Origin: an uncultured Eubacteriales bacterium
Lineage (GTDB): Bacteria; Bacillota; Clostridia; Peptostreptococcales; Anaerovoracaceae
Assembly: GCA_902766185.1 (NCBI GenBank)
Contig: CACXCQ010000278.1
Location: 1 to 20,386 of the forward strand
Direction: 5' to 3'
DNA length: 20,386 bases
Under the pieces are notes generated by a model. That model was given only the letters and a program-made list of their open reading frames with translations. It searched no databases and was not told the DNA's origin. A program made the translations under genes and the position numbers. This document shows, piece after piece, positions 897 to 9,442 of the stretch. Position 1 is the stretch's first letter; the number at the start of each line of letters is the position of its first letter.

Positions 897-2540
897 CTAC
901 CATAATCTGAGACGATCGCACACCGATGCCAGCTTTCTTCCGACGGAGATCTCCATCATCTCTTCTCTGCTGATCGCCCTGGTTTTGATGATCATCAGCC
1001 CGTAGACGATCACGCCGATAAGGATGCCGATCAGCGTGATGAGCGCGTTGCTTCCCAGAGAGTCGCTCCCCATGGCCGCCTCCAGCCCGCGGTAGACCAG
1101 ATAGACCAGTCCTCCCATGACCACTGCGGAGATGCCCGGCTTCACGATCATTTTGCGCAAAGGCAGGCGAACCCCGGTAAAGCGAAGGACGCACCACATA
1201 TCCAGAGATCCGGCTACCAGGTAGGCGGCAATGGTTCCCAGAGGTGCTCCCACGATGTTCACCTGGGGGATCCCCACAAGGATCCAGGTGATCACCACTT
1301 TGAAGAGCAGACCGATGAACAGATTGATCACTGGATAGACCTGTTTCCCCACCCCCTGCAGGATGCCGGTCATGATGGTGATCAGCGCCAGAAAGATGAA
1401 GCTGACGCTCAGCGTCTGCATGCAGGGCACCGCGCTGATGGCGCTTTCCTTCTGGGTGAAATACAGCGTCAGCAGGACCGGCTGCGCCAGCGCGAAGAGT
1501 CCTGCCGCACAGGGGAACGCGATGATGGTGGTCATCCGCATGCCCAGTGAAATGGTATCGTGCAGTTTTTCCGTATCCCTCACCTTGTTGGCCGCGGCCA
1601 CCATGGGAACGATGCTCATGACGATGGCGGACATCAGCACCTGGGGGAATCCGATGAGGGGCTCGCAAAAGGCGGTCAGCTGTCCGTAAAGCTTCTCCGC
1701 CATGACATCGTCGAAGCCGGCCACCTCAAGGCGGATCTTTACCACCGAAGCGTCTACCAGATTCACCAGCGGCATCAGCGTCGCGCCGATGGTGATGGGG
1801 ACGGCGATGCCGATAATGGACCGCAGGATCGATCCCGCGGACTCCCGGTCTCCTTTGCTGCTGCGGCGGATCCGCTGCTTCAGTCCCTTCCGGGCCATCA
1901 GATAGATCATGACCATCACTGCAAGTCCGCCGACCGCTCCCGCGGAGGCGCCGAAACATCCTCCGGCCGCTCCCTTCTGCAGGGAGGTGTAGGATTCGGA
2001 AAGGAAACTGCTGCGCATCAGAATCACCGCCAGAGCCAGCCCGATCCCCACGCGGAACACCTGCTCCACCACCTGGGAGATCGCCGTGGGAGCCATCAGC
2101 TGCTGCCCCTGGAAATACCCCCGGTAGGAGGACATGATCGGAACCAGAAGCAGGGCCGGCGCCGTGGCCTGCATGGCGAGTGCCGATCCTTCCAGATGCA
2201 TGGCGGCCGCAATGGGTCTGGAGAAGAAGAACAGCACGATGAAGCCCACTACACCCAGAGAGATCATCAGCTTTCGCGAAATGTGGAACACCCGGTCCGC
2301 CTCATCGAACCTGCCGATGGCGTATCGTTCGGATACCATCCGGGAGATGGCGATGGGGATACCGGATGTGGAGATGACCAGAAGAACGGCATAGAGACTG
2401 TAGGCCGGCGTATAATACGCCATGCCCTGATCCGTGACGATATTAGCCAGGGGGATCCTGAAGAATGCCCCCAGGACCTTGACGAATATTCCGGCGACAC
2501 CCAGTATCGCCGCTCCTTTGACCAGTGATTTCTCTGTCAT
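897..2540 (-). CDS. MurJ/YtgP-like lipid flippase (SpoVB/YabM family, MOP superfamily)
   Basis: This 547-residue polytopic membrane protein has many hydrophobic helices, about 14 expected for the family. It opens SLVKGAAILGVAGIFVKVLG, the usual first helix of SpoVB/MurJ-type polysaccharide exporters. The segment SYRGYFQGQQLMAPTAISQV (about residues 138-157) is the signature shared with Bacillus YtgP/MurJ. Such proteins flip undecaprenyl-linked precursors such as lipid II across the membrane. By position, just before hup and rqcP, it corresponds to Bacillus yabM, whose substrate is unclear. The usual mazG (yabN) gene between them is missing here. Start: ATG 12 nt after the cardiolipin synthase stop, with AGAGGAA as the binding site, so co-translation is likely. 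No terminator is evident after its stop. Family is firm; which of MurJ, SpoVB or YabM it equals is not resolved. Confidence 0.9.
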   Translation of the reverse strand: MTEKSLVKGAAILGVAGIFVKVLGAFFRIPLANIVTDQGMAYYTPAYSLYAVLLVISTSGIPIAISRMVSERYAIGRFDEADRVFHISRKLMISLGVVGFIVLFFFSRPIAAAMHLEGSALAMQATAPALLLVPIMSSYRGYFQGQQLMAPTAISQVVEQVFRVGIGLALAVILMRSSFLSESYTSLQKGAAGGCFGASAGAVGGLAVMVMIYLMARKGLKQRIRRSSKGDRESAGSILRSIIGIAVPITIGATLMPLVNLVDASVVKIRLEVAGFDDVMAEKLYGQLTAFCEPLIGFPQVLMSAIVMSIVPMVAAANKVRDTEKLHDTISLGMRMTTIIAFPCAAGLFALAQPVLLTLYFTQKESAISAVPCMQTLSVSFIFLALITIMTGILQGVGKQVYPVINLFIGLLFKVVITWILVGIPQVNIVGAPLGTIAAYLVAGSLDMWCVLRFTGVRLPLRKMIVKPGISAVVMGGLVYLVYRGLEAAMGSDSLGSNALITLIGILIGVIVYGLMIIKTRAISREEMMEISVGRKLASVCDRLRLW

Positions 2541-2552
2541 ATACTCATTCCT

Positions 2553-4151
2553 CTACATCAGCGGGGCCACGATCCGCAGCGCCCTGCCCGCGATCTTCGC
2601 CGGCACGCTGTAGTTTCGGCACTCCTCCAGAGTGATCCGCTGACATTTTCTCAATGTCTTCTGAAAGTCCTTTTCCATGTCGTCAACGACCGGATTGTTG
2701 TAGATGTACGCAGCGCACTCGAAGTGCAGGTACAAGCTGCGGTAATCCAGATTGATGGTTCCCGTCACGCCCCTGATGTCGTCGCTGACGAACACCTTGG
2801 CGTGAACGAATCCGGGAGTGTACTCGTAGATCTTCACCCCTCCCCGGATCAGCTCGCCGTAATAGGTCCTGGCCAGCCAGTAGGCGTATTTCTTGTCGGG
2901 GATGTGAGGCAGGATGATCTTCACCTCGATCCCCCGCTGCGCGGCGAAGATCAGCGAATGGATCATGGTCTCCGTCAGGATCAGATACGGCGTCATGATG
3001 TGCACGTACTTGTCCGCCCGGTTGATGATGTCCAGATAGACCTTCTCCCCCACCGCCTCCGTGTCCAGGGGCGAATCGCCGAAGGGAGCGATGAGCCCGC
3101 CCTGCTTCATCCCGGGATCGGGACTTCCGGTCTCGGTAACGATGTAGCGGTGGTACTCTTCCCTTCTGGTCTCGTCGATGTTCCACATCTGCAGGAACAT
3201 CAGCGTGAAGCTGTTCACCGCCTTGCCCTCCACCATGATGGAGGCGTCCTTCCAGTGGCCGAACCTCAGCCGGCGGTTGATGTATTCATCCGCCAGGTTG
3301 ACGCCACCGGTGAAGGCCACGTGCCCGTCGATGACGGCGATCTTGCGGTGATCCCGGTTGTTCTGGTGCGTGGAAAGGAACGGGACCATGGGCGCGAACA
3401 CCTTGCACTGGATCCCCAGCTGCTCCATCTCCTGCGGATACTTCCGGGGAAGCAGGGACAGCGTACAGGTGCCGTCATACATCAGGCGCACCTCCACGCC
3501 CTGCTCTGCCTTTGCCTTGAGCACATCCAGGACCGCATCCCACATCTGCCCCCGGTCGATGATGAAATACTCCAGGAAGATGAATTTCTCCGCCCGCCGG
3601 AGCTGGTCCATCAGCTCTTTGAACTTTTCCTCCCCGGAGGGCAGGTATTTCACGCAGGCATCGTCGTAGGACGGGTAATGCCCGTCCTCGTAGATGTACT
3701 TGAATATCCCGTATTCCTGTCTGGCGTCCACCAGCTCCCGCTCGATGGTGCAGCGGTCCGGCGCCAGGTAGGTCCGCTGCTCGTTCAGCAGCTGCTCCAC
3801 CCGGTTGGCTATGGATGCCGTGCCCGGCTGGATCCTGGTGTAGATGAACAGCGTCACTCCGAATACCGGCACCGAAGCGATGAGGATGATCCACATGAGC
3901 TTGAAGTTGGCGTCGGAATTGGAATTCAGCAGATAGACCAGGATCAGGACGGAGAGAAAGCCGATCACGTAGTTGATGACGATGACCTTGGATCCCAGAA
4001 AATAAGATCCGCCCAGCAGCGCCATTGCCTGAATCAAAAGCAGAAGGACGAACATGGTCGTCCTTCCGAACAGCAGCTTCCACAAGCCGCCCAGCCGCCG
4101 GAGCAGCCGTTCATCTTCAGCTTTTTTGTACAGATCCGTTTCTTCAGTCAT
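2553..4151 (-). CDS. cls: Cardiolipin synthase, phospholipase D type
   Basis: At 532 residues this is close to the usual bacterial Cls length of about 480-510. The N-terminus has three hydrophobic segments (about 31-53, 56-77 and 85-105) that anchor it in the membrane. Two HxKxxxxD phospholipase D motifs follow: H268/K270/D275 in HRKIAVID and H450/K452/D457 in HAKVFVSD, both complete, with the expected downstream TGGVNLADEY and TGTINLDYRS. Both half-sites being intact argues for an active enzyme joining two phosphatidylglycerols into cardiolipin plus glycerol. Its ATG lies inside the last codons of the upstream giant repeat gene, overlapping by 8 nt (ATGACTGA). With no strong binding site of its own, it is probably translationally coupled. 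The next gene, a flippase, starts 12 nt after its stop. Confidence 0.95.
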   Translation of the reverse strand: MTEETDLYKKAEDERLLRRLGGLWKLLFGRTTMFVLLLLIQAMALLGGSYFLGSKVIVINYVIGFLSVLILVYLLNSNSDANFKLMWIILIASVPVFGVTLFIYTRIQPGTASIANRVEQLLNEQRTYLAPDRCTIERELVDARQEYGIFKYIYEDGHYPSYDDACVKYLPSGEEKFKELMDQLRRAEKFIFLEYFIIDRGQMWDAVLDVLKAKAEQGVEVRLMYDGTCTLSLLPRKYPQEMEQLGIQCKVFAPMVPFLSTHQNNRDHRKIAVIDGHVAFTGGVNLADEYINRRLRFGHWKDASIMVEGKAVNSFTLMFLQMWNIDETRREEYHRYIVTETGSPDPGMKQGGLIAPFGDSPLDTEAVGEKVYLDIINRADKYVHIMTPYLILTETMIHSLIFAAQRGIEVKIILPHIPDKKYAYWLARTYYGELIRGGVKIYEYTPGFVHAKVFVSDDIRGVTGTINLDYRSLYLHFECAAYIYNNPVVDDMEKDFQKTLRKCQRITLEECRNYSVPAKIAGRALRIVAPLM

Positions 4152-7100
4152 TCACGATTTCCCATGTGAGGCGGATCGGTTCCGTCACCTGATGGTTCGG
4201 CAGGGGCGGGATGTTCAGGTAGGCCTTCGCCTCGTAAACGCCCGGCTCCTTTGCCGTGTTCCCTTCGTAGCGGACGGTGGTTCCCTCCGGAAGTCCAAGG
4301 TACTTCACGTCCTTGTTCTTTCCGAACAGTCTGCCCACGGCTCCCCTTTCGGGTCCGTCCGCCTGCAGCGTCACCGTACGGTTTCGTCCTCCAGCCTTGA
4401 AGGGTCCCTCATAGTTCCAGCGGACGCCGCTGACATCCAGAGGCGCTTTCGCGATCTCCCAGGTGCAGGAAAGCTCCGCCGGCGGGTTGTAGTTGTTCTC
4501 ATCGTAGAGGAACCTGGCTGTTGCGGTATACACACCCGCGTCCACTCCGGTGTTTCCTTCGTAGATCGGTTCCAGTCCGTCCTCGAGTCCCGTCAGCATG
4601 ACCGACTTGACGGTTCCGTCGTAGACGAATCCCTCCTGCCCTGTCCATACTGCGGTGCTCATGTCGTAATCCCGCTTGCCGATCCTCCACTCCAGAGGCG
4701 GAACGGCAGGCGCTTCGTAATTCATCGGGTCGGCCATGATCAGCGTAGCCTGAGCCACATAGTCTCCGGCCTCGATGGCGGCGTTGCCCTGATAACGGGC
4801 GGTGATCCCTTCCGGAAGATCCACCAGCTCCACCATCTTCTCGTACCCGTCATAGGTGAACTCGAACGCATAGCTCCAGGCTACCTCGGAAATGTCCGGT
4901 ACAGCCTTTGCGATGGTCCATGTGCAGCCCTCGATCTCGGGCGCTGTGTAGTTGTTGCTGTGGGTGGAGAGGACTGCGGAGGCGTGGTATGTTCCCGCGT
5001 CCACCGCCACATTGTTCTCGTATTCCACGGAGATGTCGTCCGAAAGCCCGGTAAGTCCCACCACCTTCAGGGTGCCGTCGTAGACCAACTCTCCCGAGGA
5101 GGCCCACATGACGCCGGCGATGTCGATCTCCGCCTTTTCGATCTCCCACCGGTAGGGTTCCACCACGCAGGGCAGGAAATTCCGGTCATCCTCGGGCTCC
5201 AGCACAGCGCTGGCGATGTACTGGCCGGCGTCCACCGCCGTGTTCCCCTGGTAGACCGGGTTGACGCCCTGGGGCAGGCCCGCCAGGCGGATGCTGTGGG
5301 GTTCGCCGTCGTAGATCAGGTCGTCTCCGCCGCTGATCCAGTAGGTGCTCTCCGCGCTGATCTGGGCTTTGGCCACAGACCATTCGTACTGCATCCTGCG
5401 CGGGGTGTTGTAATTCCGCTGATCCTTCGGCCGGAAGTCCGCGGTAGCGATGTAGTAACCGGCGTCAGCCGCGGCGTTGCCCTCGTAGACCGCCTCGACC
5501 AGATCCGGCAGGTTCTGCAGCAGTACGCGGTGGACCGTTCCATCGTAGACGAAGGTCTCGTAACCGGTCCAGGTGGCTTCGCTGATGTCGATGTCCGCCC
5601 TGCCGATCTGCCAGCTGCAGCCGCCGATCTTCGGGGGCTCAAAGTTGTTCTCATCGTAAGGGGTGAGCTTCGCTTCCGCCCGGTATGACCCGGCATCCAC
5701 TGCCTCGTTTCCGGTGTATTCCACGCGCAGTCCGGCGGGAAGTCCCTCCAGATGCGCCTCCTTCAGCATGCCATCGTAAACGCTGTCCTCCGGAAGGACC
5801 CAGAAAGCGTCGCTGACGTCGATCTGCGCCTTGTTGATCCGCCACACCTTGCCCAGGATCGGTGTCCTGTGGAAGCTGCTTCCCTCTGGCGGGATGAGCT
5901 CTGCCCGTGCGGCGTATTCGCCGGCTTCGCTGGCCACATTTCCAGTGTACTCCGCGGTGACCCCCTCCGGAAGGCCCGTGAGGAGGATCTGCTTTTCGCT
6001 GCCGTCATAGGTGAACGGATCGCTGTAATCCCAGCGGATCCCCTTCAGATCGATGGCCGCCGGTTCAATATTCCAGGTCACTTCCCGCGGCTGCGGCGGA
6101 ACGAAGTTGCTCGTATCCTCCACGGCAAACACTGCCTTTGCGCGGTACTCGCCGGCCTCAATGGCCTCGTTGCCTTCGTAGCTCACGCTGACTCCGGCCG
6201 GGAGTCCCTTCATCTGCACGAACTTGCCCGCGCCGTCGAAGATCCTCTCCTGATCCGTATCCCAGAAGGATCCGGTGATGTCGAAGACCGCCTTGCGGAT
6301 CTCCCAGGTCAGCTCCTTCGGCTGGGGCGTATTGAAGTTGTCGGGATCGAGAGGCGTAATGAACGCTCTGGTCGTATGTGTCCCGGCATTCACCGCGCCG
6401 CCGTTCTCGTAGCTTACCGCCGCGTTATCCGGAAGTCCGGTAACGTGGACCTGATGCTCCCCGCCGTCGTAGGTGAATGGCTCGTCGTAATCCCAGCCAA
6501 CATCCGAAAGCTTCAGGTTCGCCTTCAGGATGGTCCACCGGCAGTCCGGGATGACCGGCGGATTGTAGTTCTCCTGATCGTAGGTGAATTCCGCTCTGGC
6601 CAGATAACTTCCCGCGTTCGTTCCCCGCTCTCCGCTGTAGCTCACCGCCTGGATCTGCTCAGGAATGCTCTTCAGCTCCACGGTTTTTTCCATGCCGTTG
6701 TAGATATACGGGCTGCTGTAGTTCCAGCGCATCTTCGACAGATCGATGTCCGCGCGCCGGATCTCCCACTTCACGGTGATGGGATCCATCTGGTTATAGT
6801 TGTTCAGATCGTCTACGCAGAACTCTGCGCGGGCGGTGTATTCTCCCGTCTCGATCCCCCGGTCGCCTTCGTAAAGCACGCTGACGCCCTCCGGAATGCC
6901 TTCCAGGTGCACGCCCTGCTCTTCCCCGGTGTACACCAGGCTGCAGTTGGTCCACGCCATGTTCTCCACATCGTGGTCCGCCTTCTGGATCTGCCAGGAG
7001 AAGGCTACGGGATCCGGCAGCTCATAGTTCACCGGATCGTCCGGAACGAAGACAGCCCTGGCGGTATATATTCCCGCGTCCGACGCAACGTTGCCGGTGT

Positions 7101-8862
7101 ATTCTGCCCGAAGGCCTTCCGGCAGTCCCGCCAGCTCCACCTTCTTCGGGGTCCCGTCATAGGTGAATACTCCGGAGCCCTCCCAGTGGACGTCGCTCAT
7201 GTCATGGGTGGTCTTCAGGATCTTCCATGTGCAGGGAGCCACCGGATCGGGGCTGCTGTAGTTATCGATGTCGTAGTCAAGACCCGCCGTGGCCACATAC
7301 GTGCCGGCATTCACGGCATCCGCTCCCGCGTAATAGGGAACGGTCCCGTCGGGAAGCCCCTCCAGCCGGACGCTCTTGGGCTGGCCGTCATAGGTGAAGG
7401 CCTCCATATAGGACCAGTTCAGGCCGGACATCTGATACCTGCCTTTGGATATGCTCCAGACCAGATCTTCCACCGGCCGGGGAGCGAAATAATTGTCCTC
7501 ATCGTAGCTGAGGATGGCCGCGGCCCGGTACTGTCCCACCTCGGTTGCCGTGTTTCCCGCGTATTCTGCGGTGACACCCTCCGGAAGGCCCTCCAGGGCC
7601 ACCGTTTTTTTCTGGCCGTCATAGGTCAGATCCTCCGGCAGCGCCCAGTGCGCGCCGCTCATATCGTATTCGGCCCGAAGGATGCGGACCGGTTTTTCCT
7701 CGGAGATCGTCTCGCCCACGAAGTTCTCCGCCACGTACCGGATCCTGGATCCGCTCATGGCGACGGGCAAAGGCTGGTCGTTGCTGAATTCCTCCCAGCG
7801 GCTGTCCGGAGCCTGCCAGATCTGGACCTTCAGAGAGGTGATCTCTCCGTGGCGCGGATCGATGACGGGATCCTTCAGTTCAAGAAGCTGTCCGTATTCC
7901 GTCTCCGGAATGTCATAGACCTGCTCAAAGACCGGGGTTCCCGCCCAGATGGCGTACAGCGTCATGTCTTTGTGGACGTTGAACAGCTGCCCGGGCTGAA
8001 TGCCCCTTCCGCTGCCGTCCCTTCTGGTGTTCCATTCCTTGAACACCAGGCCTTCGGGAGCCAGGAACAGGCCGCGCTTCGCCCGAAGCTGTGTACCGGC
8101 TTCGCAGGTCTGCTGCAGGGGTTCCTCAGAATCGCGCTCTCCCCCGTTTCCGTCGTATTTCATGGTGAACTCTGTGCCGGCGATGTACAGAACGCCATCG
8201 GTAGATGTGCGCCAGTCGGAAGCCCGCACGGTATCTTCGCTATCCTCCTGCGCGTCCTCGTCTTCACTGAATTCCGGCATGGAAATGATGGCCCTTCCGC
8301 CGCCGCCCAGGGAGAAGTTCTTTCCCGGGTCAAGGGCGCGCAGCCCGCTGCAGCCGAAGAGCATATCGTCTGTCATTTGCAGAGAACGATTGTCCAGAGT
8401 CGAAAGATCGAGGGATTTCAGATCGTTGCAGTACATGAACATTTTGGAAACGTCCATGACGGAGGAGATATCGATGCTGCCCAGTTCCACTTCCTTCAGA
8501 CTGCTGCAGGAAAGGAACATGCAGCTCATGTCCATCACCTTGCCGGTATCCAGCATCGACAGATCGATACGCTCCAGCGATCTGCACCCGCAGAACATCC
8601 AGGAAAAGTCCACCGCGTTCGAGGTGTCCAGACCCCGCAGGTCCGCCTCCTCGAGTGACGGGCAGTTCATGAAGGCTCCGATCAGGCTGACCACGCCGGT
8701 CACCTCTCCATCAAAGGATATCCTGCGGATCTTCTCCCTGTACTCGTCCCACGGATACGTGCCGTCTGCAGATACGCTCTCGGCGGTGCCGGCCGAAAAG
8801 ACCAGTTCCCCGTCTTCTGAAAGCGTCCATTCACATGTTCCCCAGTTTCCAGTGGCAATCAC
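4144..8862 (-). CDS. Giant leaderless repeat protein: BspA-type LRR, Listeria-Bacteroides repeat and 15 MBG/YDG-type repeats
   Basis: The 1572-residue product is modular. Residues 4-50 (NWGTCEWTLSEDGELVFSAG) resemble the lead-in of BspA-like surface proteins. Residues 53-178 are five leucine-rich repeats of the DUF285 type, with the conserved Cys at 67, 93, 119, 145 and 171, exactly 26 apart. An acidic linker (197-210) leads to one Listeria-Bacteroides-type repeat (231-308, KYDGNGG to LYAIW). Residues 399-1572 are fifteen repeats of about 77 residues with TYDG, GLPEG, YEGN, AG.Y.A.A, NY and a W-I-KA link, like MBG/YDG bacterial Ig-like domains. No signal peptide, membrane helix or LPXTG-like end is seen. 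The GTG start has GGGAGGT 6 nt upstream, and an in-frame TGA sits seven codons upstream, so no leader was missed. It lies 40 nt after hpt and overlaps cls by 8 nt. The fold suggests binding or scaffolding; function and cell location are unknown. Confidence 0.88.
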   Translation of the reverse strand: MIATGNWGTCEWTLSEDGELVFSAGTAESVSADGTYPWDEYREKIRRISFDGEVTGVVSLIGAFMNCPSLEEADLRGLDTSNAVDFSWMFCGCRSLERIDLSMLDTGKVMDMSCMFLSCSSLKEVELGSIDISSVMDVSKMFMYCNDLKSLDLSTLDNRSLQMTDDMLFGCSGLRALDPGKNFSLGGGGRAIISMPEFSEDEDAQEDSEDTVRASDWRTSTDGVLYIAGTEFTMKYDGNGGERDSEEPLQQTCEAGTQLRAKRGLFLAPEGLVFKEWNTRRDGSGRGIQPGQLFNVHKDMTLYAIWAGTPVFEQVYDIPETEYGQLLELKDPVIDPRHGEITSLKVQIWQAPDSRWEEFSNDQPLPVAMSGSRIRYVAENFVGETISEEKPVRILRAEYDMSGAHWALPEDLTYDGQKKTVALEGLPEGVTAEYAGNTATEVGQYRAAAILSYDEDNYFAPRPVEDLVWSISKGRYQMSGLNWSYMEAFTYDGQPKSVRLEGLPDGTVPYYAGADAVNAGTYVATAGLDYDIDNYSSPDPVAPCTWKILKTTHDMSDVHWEGSGVFTYDGTPKKVELAGLPEGLRAEYTGNVASDAGIYTARAVFVPDDPVNYELPDPVAFSWQIQKADHDVENMAWTNCSLVYTGEEQGVHLEGIPEGVSVLYEGDRGIETGEYTARAEFCVDDLNNYNQMDPITVKWEIRRADIDLSKMRWNYSSPYIYNGMEKTVELKSIPEQIQAVSYSGERGTNAGSYLARAEFTYDQENYNPPVIPDCRWTILKANLKLSDVGWDYDEPFTYDGGEHQVHVTGLPDNAAVSYENGGAVNAGTHTTRAFITPLDPDNFNTPQPKELTWEIRKAVFDITGSFWDTDQERIFDGAGKFVQMKGLPAGVSVSYEGNEAIEAGEYRAKAVFAVEDTSNFVPPQPREVTWNIEPAAIDLKGIRWDYSDPFTYDGSEKQILLTGLPEGVTAEYTGNVASEAGEYAARAELIPPEGSSFHRTPILGKVWRINKAQIDVSDAFWVLPEDSVYDGMLKEAHLEGLPAGLRVEYTGNEAVDAGSYRAEAKLTPYDENNFEPPKIGGCSWQIGRADIDISEATWTGYETFVYDGTVHRVLLQNLPDLVEAVYEGNAAADAGYYIATADFRPKDQRNYNTPRRMQYEWSVAKAQISAESTYWISGGDDLIYDGEPHSIRLAGLPQGVNPVYQGNTAVDAGQYIASAVLEPEDDRNFLPCVVEPYRWEIEKAEIDIAGVMWASSGELVYDGTLKVVGLTGLSDDISVEYENNVAVDAGTYHASAVLSTHSNNYTAPEIEGCTWTIAKAVPDISEVAWSYAFEFTYDGYEKMVELVDLPEGITARYQGNAAIEAGDYVAQATLIMADPMNYEAPAVPPLEWRIGKRDYDMSTAVWTGQEGFVYDGTVKSVMLTGLEDGLEPIYEGNTGVDAGVYTATARFLYDENNYNPPAELSCTWEIAKAPLDVSGVRWNYEGPFKAGGRNRTVTLQADGPERGAVGRLFGKNKDVKYLGLPEGTTVRYEGNTAKEPGVYEAKAYLNIPPLPNHQVTEPIRLTWEIVND
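4147..7668 (-). repeat. Array of fifteen coding repeats of about 231 nt (77 residues)
   Basis: Repeat units begin near residues 399, 476, 553, 630, 706, 783, 860, 937, 1014, 1091, 1168, 1246, 1322, 1399 and 1475, so spacing stays at 76-78 throughout. Each starts D-[MIVL]-S-x-x-x-W and contains TYDG or a variant near position 15 and GLP about 12 residues later. Unit 4 has YTG and unit 7 has FDG in place of YDG. The last unit lacks YDG and has an insertion of roughly 18 residues (about 1501-1520). The copies differ widely in sequence, so this is an old domain array rather than a recent DNA-level amplification. Confidence 0.9.
8329..8706 (-). repeat. Five 26-residue leucine-rich repeats (BspA/DUF285 type)
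   Basis: Within the giant protein, residues 53-178 repeat a pattern of M-F-x-x-C-x-S-L-x-x-x-x-L-x-x-L-D-T-S-x-V-x-D-x-S. The conserved cysteines at 67, 93, 119, 145 and 171 fall at an exact 26-residue period. This layout is known from BspA-like surface proteins and from the mycoplasma DUF285 family. The repeats end in LRALDPGKNF, a common capping phrase for this family. Confidence 0.85.
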
Positions 8863-8902
8863 GTTGCTACCTCCCTGTGCTCAAAAAAGAATATAAACCG
8901 TA

Positions 8903-9442
8903 TCAATCCTCCAGGTACGTGATGTACGGGAGATTTCTGTACCGCTGGTCATAGTCGAGACCATAGCCTACGATGAACCGGTCGTCCACCGTGAACCCGA
9001 TGTAGTCCACATCGATCTCCACCCTGCGGCCTTCCGGCTTGTCCAGAAGAGAACAGATCCTGACCACCTTCGCTCCGCGGCTGACAAAGTATCCCCGCAG
9101 ATAGTTCAGGGTCACGCCGCTGTCCACGATGTCCTCAACGATGATGACCGTCTTTCCCTCGATGTCCGTATCCAGGTCCTTGTTGATCTTCACGACACCG
9201 GAGGATTTGGTGGCTGCGCCGTAGCTGCTCACCGCCATGAAATCGATGGTCATGTCCAGATTCACGTTCTTCATCAGATCCGCCATCCACAGGACAGCTC
9301 CGCGAAGAATGCCGACCATGACGATCTGTTCGCCCTGGTAGTCCTCCGTGATCTGTCTGCCGATCTCCTTCGCCTTGGCGAGGATCTCTTCCTGCGTGAT
9401 CATGATGGTGCCGATGGTGTTATTGTGCGTGTCCGTCTGCAT
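8903..9442 (-). CDS. hpt: Hypoxanthine phosphoribosyltransferase
   Basis: The 179-residue enzyme salvages hypoxanthine and guanine by joining them to PRPP to give IMP and GMP in the cytoplasm. The PRPP-binding loop VIIVEDIVDSGVTLNYL is complete, with the acidic pair E-D. The family landmarks VGILRGAVLWMADL, DFMAVSSYG, LLDKPEGRR and VGYGLDYDQRYRNLPYI are all present. I chose the ATG at 9442 because AGAGG lies about 6 nt upstream and because the segment before MITQEEI aligns with the start of Bacillus HprT. The internal ATG at 9403 has no binding site. The gene overlaps the end of the DUF1232 gene by 23 nt and the giant repeat gene follows 40 nt later, so it is co-transcribed in the tig operon. 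Confidence 0.96.
   Translation of the reverse strand: MQTDTHNNTIGTIMITQEEILAKAKEIGRQITEDYQGEQIVMVGILRGAVLWMADLMKNVNLDMTIDFMAVSSYGAATKSSGVVKINKDLDTDIEGKTVIIVEDIVDSGVTLNYLRGYFVSRGAKVVRICSLLDKPEGRRVEIDVDYIGFTVDDRFIVGYGLDYDQRYRNLPYITYLED

What the first reader, a model, noticed from the sequence alone, without database searches (positions are those of the whole stretch)
4144..8862. Surface-protein architecture with no export signal
The 1572-residue product joins BspA-type LRRs, a Listeria-Bacteroides-type repeat and 15 MBG/YDG-like domains, all normally found in secreted or wall-bound proteins. I see no signal peptide, membrane helix or sorting motif at either end. The GTG start has a well-placed GGGAGGT, and an in-frame TGA seven codons upstream plus only 40 nt to hpt leave no room for a leader. 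Either it is a cytoplasmic scaffold built from adhesin parts, or it is exported by an unconventional route.
Basis: partly seen in the sequence, partly recalled or inferred. Interest (0 to 1): 0.72.

Follow-up and report, generated by a model that had tools for sequence, protein, structure and literature searches.

The report
Giant adhesin-like protein lacking export signal
A 1,572-residue protein built from parts normally found on bacterial cell surfaces has no export signal in this gut bacterium or in the relatives that could be checked, and carries one extra loop that the exported cousins checked lack, so it likely stays inside the cell and would use that loop to sit on the inner face of the membrane.

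Summary
The gene (4144-8862, minus strand) encodes a BspA-type cap and LRR, a Listeria-Bacteroides repeat and 15 MBG repeats, with no leader. It is not an artefact: of 187 proteins listed by three capped searches, 125 share the cap start plus at least 10 MBG repeats, and none has a convincing signal peptide or C-terminal membrane helix. The gene is under purifying selection and present in 43 of 47 genomes of a sister genus. Exported homologs, one in the same genome, carry a signal peptide before the same kind of cap, so this protein starts where a mature adhesin would. Three signs favour the cytoplasm: MBG repeats about five times richer in cysteine than in signal-bearing relatives (with exceptions); one SecA and no EssC above cut-off in 12 genomes; and one extra loop in one repeat in 122 of 125 members, against 0 of 13 exported MBG proteins, often resembling MinD's membrane-targeting sequence (the window's own copy only loosely). 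I commit to a cytoplasmic rod moored to the inner membrane face. Location, membrane binding and function are untested; unconventional export is the main rival. The database label 'BspA family surface protein' is probably misleading here.

The parts
4144..8862 (-). leaderless giant protein gene, 1572 aa, GTG start
8869..8875 (-). ribosome-binding-site-like GGGAGGT, 6 nt before GTG
8881..8883 (-). in-frame TGA seven codons upstream of the start
8698..8862 (-). N-terminal BspA-type cap, aa 1-55; residues 3-7 form a strand in the model (pLDDT about 95)
8347..8685 (-). DUF285 / PARCEL leucine-rich repeats, aa 60-172
7951..8169 (-). Listeria-Bacteroides repeat, aa 232-304 (below Pfam cut-off)
4153..7677 (-). 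15 MBG repeats, aa 396-1570
4297..4362 (-). extra loop in repeat 15, aa 1501-1522 (ADGPERGAVGRLFGKNKDVKYL); short helix predicted at aa 1508-1512, low confidence
8903..9442 (-). hpt, hypoxanthine phosphoribosyltransferase, 40 nt upstream
2553..4151 (-). cls, cardiolipin synthase; overlaps the target by 8 bp
897..2540 (-). SpoVB/MurJ-like flippase (SpoVB model matched below its cut-off)

Best explanation
This is a conserved family of giant proteins that start at the cap which, in exported BspA-type homologs, follows the signal peptide, and they likely work inside the cell as long rods predicted to dock on the inner face of the membrane through one conserved extra loop. SHOWN: no convincing leader in the window or in any relative that could be checked; purifying selection; near-fixation in a sister genus; fixed repeat order within the window's clade; one repeat with an extra loop in 122 of 125 members and in none of 13 exported MBG proteins. 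INFERRED: (1) the protein stays in the cytoplasm, from the missing signal, the cysteine-rich repeats and the lack of SecA2- or EssC-type exporters in the genomes tested; (2) the loop, in many members resembling the MinD membrane-targeting sequence, inserts into the inner leaflet; (3) the array is a rigid spacer (15 repeats at roughly 4 nm each, about 60 nm, from general knowledge of Ig-like domains) holding the LRR head, as a protein-binding end, away from the membrane. UNTESTED: the partner, and any role of the neighbours (cardiolipin synthase and a flippase here; a CNNM protein and SecA in the Mogibacterium-like clade).
For: 125 of 187 listed proteins share the cap start and >=10 MBG repeats; highest N-terminal 15-residue hydropathy 1.59, C-terminal 1.44. 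40 of 40 loci with a readable 5' end have an in-frame stop 11-61 codons before the cap motif. A same-genome BspA paralog and four same-genus ones have signal peptides, as do the four Lactobacillales proteins looked at. MBG cysteine 0.97% (1966/203404) against 0.20% (24/11774) in 13 signal-bearing proteins. Loop in 122 of 125 against 0 of 13; loose MinD-like motif in 95 of 125 inserts and 0 elsewhere in 248,406 aa of the family; MinD sequence KGFLKRLFGG (PMC5471200, passage). One SecA per genome and no EssC above cut-off in 12 of 12 genomes. dN/dS 0.09-0.21. 43 of 47 sister-genus genomes carry it. Repeats 13-15 of 15 in register in six comparisons.
Against: No localisation data. All its domain types are otherwise extracellular. 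Cysteine is not a clean divider: signal-bearing P0127 (1.07%) and L089 (0.78%) are cysteine-rich, window-clade loci go down to 0.25-0.51% (L041 fragment, L038, L035), and two cap-less proteins that begin inside repeats, P0073 (0.14%) and P0176 (0%), are poor; family members are not independent samples. The loop's hydrophobic moment is only weakly above shuffles (mean z 0.45, median p 0.35); the model shows a low-confidence loop with a five-residue helix; the motifs were written after seeing the inserts, and the window's own loop (RGAVGRLFGKNK) matches none of the three patterns. No in-house comparison was possible: MinD-like proteins of these genomes lack such an end and no FtsA passed the cut-off in 14 genomes. 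The cls link is positional: cls stays after hpt where the gene is absent.
Confidence: 0.45

Rival explanations
1. It is a surface or released adhesin that leaves the cell without a signal peptide, by a holin-like route, autolysis or an unknown exporter.
For: Cap, LRR, Listeria-Bacteroides and MBG domains are typical of exported proteins. Precedents: a BspA-family protein without a conventional signal peptide lies at the surface of Entamoeba (PMC5349171, passages), and giant clostridial proteins without a signal peptide leave by a holin-like protein or lysis (search listing with abstract starts).
Against: Single SecA and no EssC above cut-off in 12 genomes; no exporter or holin-like neighbour among the ORFs listed, and 40 nt and -8 nt of spacing leave no room beside the gene; cysteine-rich repeats; relatives exported by signal peptide exist in the same genome. 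Holins elsewhere in the genome and very small ORFs were not searched.
Confidence: 0.28
2. It is cytoplasmic but soluble: a scaffold or filament whose extra loop binds a protein partner, not the membrane.
For: Same evidence for a cytoplasmic site; weak amphipathic signal of the loop; low-confidence loop in the model.
Against: MinD-like pattern in many inserts. Three relatives (P0070, P0072, P0141) lost cap and LRR but kept the loop, so the loop matters without the head; this fits either reading.
Confidence: 0.2
3. The missing leader is an assembly or gene-calling artefact.
For: L065 and L070 have an in-frame hydrophobic stretch upstream of the shared start (12-residue hydropathy 2.94 and 1.76), and P0143 and P0157 are called with such longer starts.
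Against: 40 loci agree. The stretch in L065 and L070 begins in a conserved TATAAT element (read as LYN in frame) found in all 20 loci looked at, so part of it lies at or before the presumed transcription start; in the other 38 loci the frame holds no such stretch. The -35 side of this element is poor (4 of 6 in only 2 of 20), so the promoter reading is itself an inference.
Confidence: 0.02

Closest known systems
BspA-family leucine-rich repeat surface proteins (DUF285 / TIGR02167; e.g. WP_197911523 on a Lactococcus garvieae plasmid)
   Same: Same cap (SG/TG..G...W.ID..G.L.I) and same PARCEL-type LRRs
   Different: Those examined have a signal peptide before the cap or LRRs; here the start codon stands at the cap
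Signal-bearing MBG-repeat proteins (e.g. P0083, P0104, P0109, P0185)
   Same: Homologous MBG repeats, found with the same profile
   Different: Leader present, mostly low cysteine, no extra loop in 13 of 13
Membrane-targeting sequence of E. coli MinD (KGFLKRLFGG)
   Same: Many inserts have the same pattern, e.g. GFLDRLRG, GFFGKLFG
   Different: MinD's lies at the C-terminus of an ATPase (recalled); here it is a loop inside an Ig-like repeat, and membrane binding is untested
Leaderless BspA-like proteins of Entamoeba (PMC5349171, passages)
   Same: BspA-type LRR protein without a conventional signal peptide or transmembrane domain
   Different: Eukaryotic, with LRR_5-type repeats, and seen at the cell surface by microscopy

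Membership tests
BspA-family LRR surface protein | DUF285/PARCEL leucine-rich repeats | tested here: met
BspA-family LRR surface protein | export signal (signal peptide) | tested here: not met
   window and 125 relatives by hydropathy, 40 loci by DNA; SignalP not available
BspA-family LRR surface protein | located on the cell surface | not testable with these tools
   needs fractionation
MBG-repeat adhesin | tandem MBG repeats | tested here: met
   15 repeats
MBG-repeat adhesin | leader or wall/membrane anchor | tested here: not met
MinD-type membrane-targeting sequence | G-hydrophobic-hydrophobic-x-basic-hydrophobic pattern | tested here: inconclusive
   loose pattern in 95 of 125 inserts, 0 elsewhere in the family, but not in the window's own copy
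MinD-type membrane-targeting sequence | amphipathic helix | tested here: inconclusive
   mean z 0.45, median p 0.35; five-residue helix at low confidence
MinD-type membrane-targeting sequence | binds membranes | not testable with these tools
   needs liposome or GFP assay
Holin-exported giant protein | dedicated holin-like gene beside it | tested here: inconclusive
   none recognised among listed ORFs of about 70-90 aa or more; smaller ORFs and the rest of the genome not searched
Substrate of accessory SecA (SecA2) | second SecA in the genome | tested here: not met
   one SecA in each of 12 genomes (G000's is split over two contigs)
Substrate of an Esx/type VII system | EssC in the genome | tested here: not met
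   no match above the TIGR03928 cut-off in 12 of 12 genomes; weaker partial matches in 10

The most novel reading that the evidence does not exclude
A new kind of bacterial intracellular scaffold: adhesin modules (LRR head plus 15-23 MBG domains) that lost their export signal and became 60-90 nm cytoplasmic rods, moored to the inner leaflet by a MinD-like loop grafted into a single repeat, and kept as a near-core gene in gut relatives of Mogibacterium.
Probability: 0.33. Interest if true: 0.82.

Novelty: new variant of a known kind. Interest (0 to 1): 0.62.

Why it matters
BspA, MBG and Listeria-Bacteroides domains are commonly read as signs of a surface location, and named records of this family carry the label 'BspA family leucine-rich repeat surface protein'. 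A conserved, leaderless family with cysteine-rich repeats breaks that rule and would add a giant adhesin-derived rod to the known bacterial intracellular scaffolds. If it is exported after all, it marks an unrecognised export route in gut Clostridia. Either way one localisation experiment decides, and the loop is a small, directly testable handle.

Tried and rejected
Phage or plasmid origin: tblastn found only partial matches, and no record had one place covering 80% of the query (13 phage and 50 plasmid records matched). Anti-phage defence: no PADLOC family at E <= 0.01. Coupling to cardiolipin synthase as the whole explanation: weakened, because in 12 fetched loci from same-genus genomes without an ortholog, cls directly follows hpt in 9, and the Mogibacterium-like clade has the gene near secA. 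PF23249 (PARP14 KH) matches are taken as false hits on MBG repeats. Amphipathic statistics on the loop were weak. Using FtsA or MinD of the same genomes as a yardstick for the loop failed. One-to-one matching of repeats between the window's clade and other clades failed. Fold search of the N-terminal model gave only low-TM matches, best a staphylococcal adhesin; a profile search of solved structures found 4gt6 'Cell surface protein' (E 1.8e-9) and two weaker chains.

Rows left out of counts: the 62 of 187 listed proteins outside the 125 include relatives without the cap motif in the first 70 residues or fragments (P0059, P0070, P0072, P0075, P0141, P0157, P0177). P0157 passed my hydropathy rule for 'signal-bearing' (N-terminal 60 residues >= 1.6, which is how that group is defined) but is a relative with an over-long gene call; with it the signal-bearing cysteine figure is 40/13564 (0.29%, 14 proteins), without it 24/11774 (0.20%, 13 proteins). 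Signal-bearing L090, L092 and L093 (0 cysteines in 3 repeats each) and L089 are not in the 13. The protein searches list only the best 120 of 243, 415 and 819 matches.

Full report
WHAT IS THERE. The window is one contig (G000:C278) of a 1.94-Mb draft genome in 335 contigs, 83% complete. On the minus strand the order is lon, engB, a DUF1232-like gene, hpt, the target, cls, a SpoVB/MurJ-like flippase and an HU-like gene; hpt, cls and the flippase were checked with NCBIfam, the other labels are recalled. The target is 1572 aa: cap (aa 1-55), DUF285 LRR (60-172), Listeria-Bacteroides repeat (232-304, below Pfam's cut-off) and 15 MBG repeats (396-1570; mean pairwise identity 38%).

THE LEADERLESS START IS A FAMILY TRAIT. 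Three protein searches (each lists at most 120 matches) gave 187 distinct proteins. Of these, 125 have the cap motif in the first 70 residues and at least 10 MBG repeats. Their highest 15-residue hydropathy is 1.59 in the first 60 residues (median 0.77) and 1.44 in the last 60. The 1.59 is P0143, whose gene call starts upstream of the Met shared by the others. The 13 proteins I call signal-bearing score 1.8-3.97 (the group is defined by >= 1.6). In DNA, 43 entries were examined (window plus L047-L088) and 3 lack a 5' end; in the other 40 the upstream in-frame stop lies 11-61 codons before the cap motif. Two have a hydrophobic in-frame stretch upstream (L065 2.94, L070 1.76 over 12 residues). 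It begins in a TATAAT element seen in all 20 of the 33 Mogibacterium-like loci that I looked at, so part of it lies at or before the presumed transcription start; the -35 side is poor (4 of 6 in 2 of 20), so this is an inference. The N-terminal model (474 aa, mean pLDDT 88) builds residues 3-7 into a strand at pLDDT about 95, so the N-terminus is part of the fold.

EXPORTED COUSINS HAVE A SIGNAL PEPTIDE BEFORE THE SAME CAP. In the same genome a 436-aa BspA paralog starts MKRLVLVTLFAFILLLGSALSVSAEE and runs into its cap; four same-genus paralogs (L043-L046) also start with hydrophobic leaders. Of 50 plasmid records with matches I looked at four: all four proteins have a leader, and in three the cap follows behind a linker; in the fourth (E. 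faecalis) only leader and LRRs are evident. One of 13 phage records was looked at: Butyrivibrio virus Arian has a leaderless LRR protein without this cap. The target reads like a mature adhesin with a new start codon.

CONSERVATION AND CONTEXT. Besides the window, 8 of 36 same-genus genomes have clear orthologs (one, G009, is a 43%-identical 2425-aa variant). In a sister genus of the same family 43 of 47 genomes match (17 of 18 of the better ones), but only 2 of the 158 genera sampled in the order do (30 of 393 genomes, E <= 1e-60). Named loci are MAGs, with goat, sheep, roe deer and horse gut samples among the titles; 11 of the 33 loci L055-L087 are labelled Mogibacterium, a genus of Anaerovoracaceae. 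dN/dS over ten pairs of five window-clade orthologs is 0.09-0.21 with dS 1.1-2.0. Within the window's clade repeats match in register (13-15 of 15 in six comparisons; 56-73% identity on the diagonal, about 39% off it); of the 125 proteins 23 have 15 repeats, 82 have 23 and 20 have other numbers; register is not kept between clades. In the window's clade the slot is hpt-(phosphate propanoyltransferase in some)-target-cls-flippase; target and cls overlap by 8 bp in 5 of 6 measured cases and 14 bp in the sixth. Of 13 loci fetched around cls, 12 are from genomes without an ortholog: hpt and cls are adjacent in 9, other genes lie between in 2, and no hpt ORF was called in 1; the 13th, from G009, ends inside cls. 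In the 33 Mogibacterium-like loci the next gene is a CNNM protein in 31 (two have no downstream gene held), then SecA in 30 of these 31. So the gene sits in housekeeping neighbourhoods but in no single partnership.

WHERE DOES IT WORK? Cysteine in MBG repeats: 1966 of 203,404 residues (0.97%; per-protein median 0.95%, range 0.43-1.58%) in the 125 proteins, against 24 of 11,774 (0.20%) in 13 signal-bearing ones. Against a clean divide: signal-bearing P0127 has 1.07% and L089 0.78%; window-clade loci go down to 0.25-0.51%; cap-less partial proteins P0073 and P0176 have 0.14% and 0%. Family members are not independent. Twelve genomes have one SecA each and no EssC above the cut-off. No exporter or holin-like neighbour was recognised among the ORFs listed. 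These favour the cytoplasm but do not prove it.

THE EXTRA LOOP. In 122 of 125 members one repeat has an insertion of about 20-40 residues after profile position 29; P0030 has a second insertion elsewhere, and the three without (P0174, P0178, P0179) look truncated or frame-shifted at their ends. None of the 13 signal-bearing MBG proteins has any insertion of 9 or more residues. The repeat that carries it differs (15 of 15 here, 19 of 23 in 80 proteins, others elsewhere), so it is kept although the array changed. Cores read GFLDRLRG, GLFDKLRG, GFFGKLFG, GIMKLIRS; the window's is RGAVGRLFGKNK. E. coli MinD's membrane-targeting sequence is KGFLKRLFGG (PMC5471200, passage). A strict MinD-like pattern is in the insert of 66 of 125 and a loose one in 95 of 125; neither occurs elsewhere in 248,406 aa of the family; a third, shorter pattern is in 100 of 125 and 21 times elsewhere. 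Seven of eight loose hits outside the 125 are in relatives that my filter had dropped, one is a chance hit. Three of those relatives (P0070, P0072, P0141) have no cap or LRR and start with an acidic stretch, still without a leader. Against the membrane reading: the patterns were written after seeing the inserts, the window's own copy matches none of them, hydrophobic moments are weak, the model shows a low-confidence loop with a five-residue helix at aa 1508-1512, and same-genome MinD or FtsA gave no yardstick.

HOW IT MOST LIKELY WORKS. A former adhesin lost its signal peptide; the cap-LRR head and MBG rod were kept as a cytoplasmic spacer; one repeat gained a loop that docks the rod on the inner leaflet. 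Shown: leader absence, homology to caps of exported proteins, selection, loop conservation. Inferred: location, docking, spacer role. The main rival, unconventional export, has precedents (PMC5349171, passages; listing only) and would be decided by fractionation.

NOVELTY. In the held library, the searches BspA + leucine-rich repeat + 'lack a signal peptide', MBG domain + adhesin, Mogibacterium + BspA, MBG domain alone, and leaderless + BspA + surface protein returned no paper that, from its listing, appears to describe this family; most subscription papers are not held. I file it as a new variant of a known kind: adhesin architecture with the export feature missing and a family-specific loop added.

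Noticed in passing
L055-L087 (20 of 33 loci looked at), about 60-150 nt upstream of the target start: A conserved element, roughly TATAATCTACTATGTAT, stands before the target gene in all 20; it may be a dedicated promoter or operator, with a poor -35 side.
   Followed up: partly
L146:2450-4063 (Butyrivibrio virus Arian, MN882551): A leaderless 537-aa DUF285 leucine-rich repeat protein in a phage genome, next to genes annotated as endonuclease and terminase/transposase small subunit.
   Followed up: partly
P0070, P0072, P0141: Relatives without cap and LRR that start with an acidic stretch but keep the MBG array and the extra loop.
   Followed up: no
L032, L039, L040, L047, L050 (between hpt and the target) and L129 (between hpt and cls): A PduL-like phosphate propanoyltransferase gene sits beside hpt in some genomes of the genus and is absent in others.
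   Followed up: no
G172:C6:149-6418: Matches in two open frames (2088 and 2153 aa) suggest two neighbouring copies or a very long array in this 99%-complete genome, whose SecA lies on another contig.
   Followed up: no
window 4144-8862, Pfam PF23249: The eukaryotic PARP14 KH model passes its cut-off on an 18-residue stretch of an MBG repeat and is precomputed for most relatives; it looks like a false-positive domain call.
   Followed up: no
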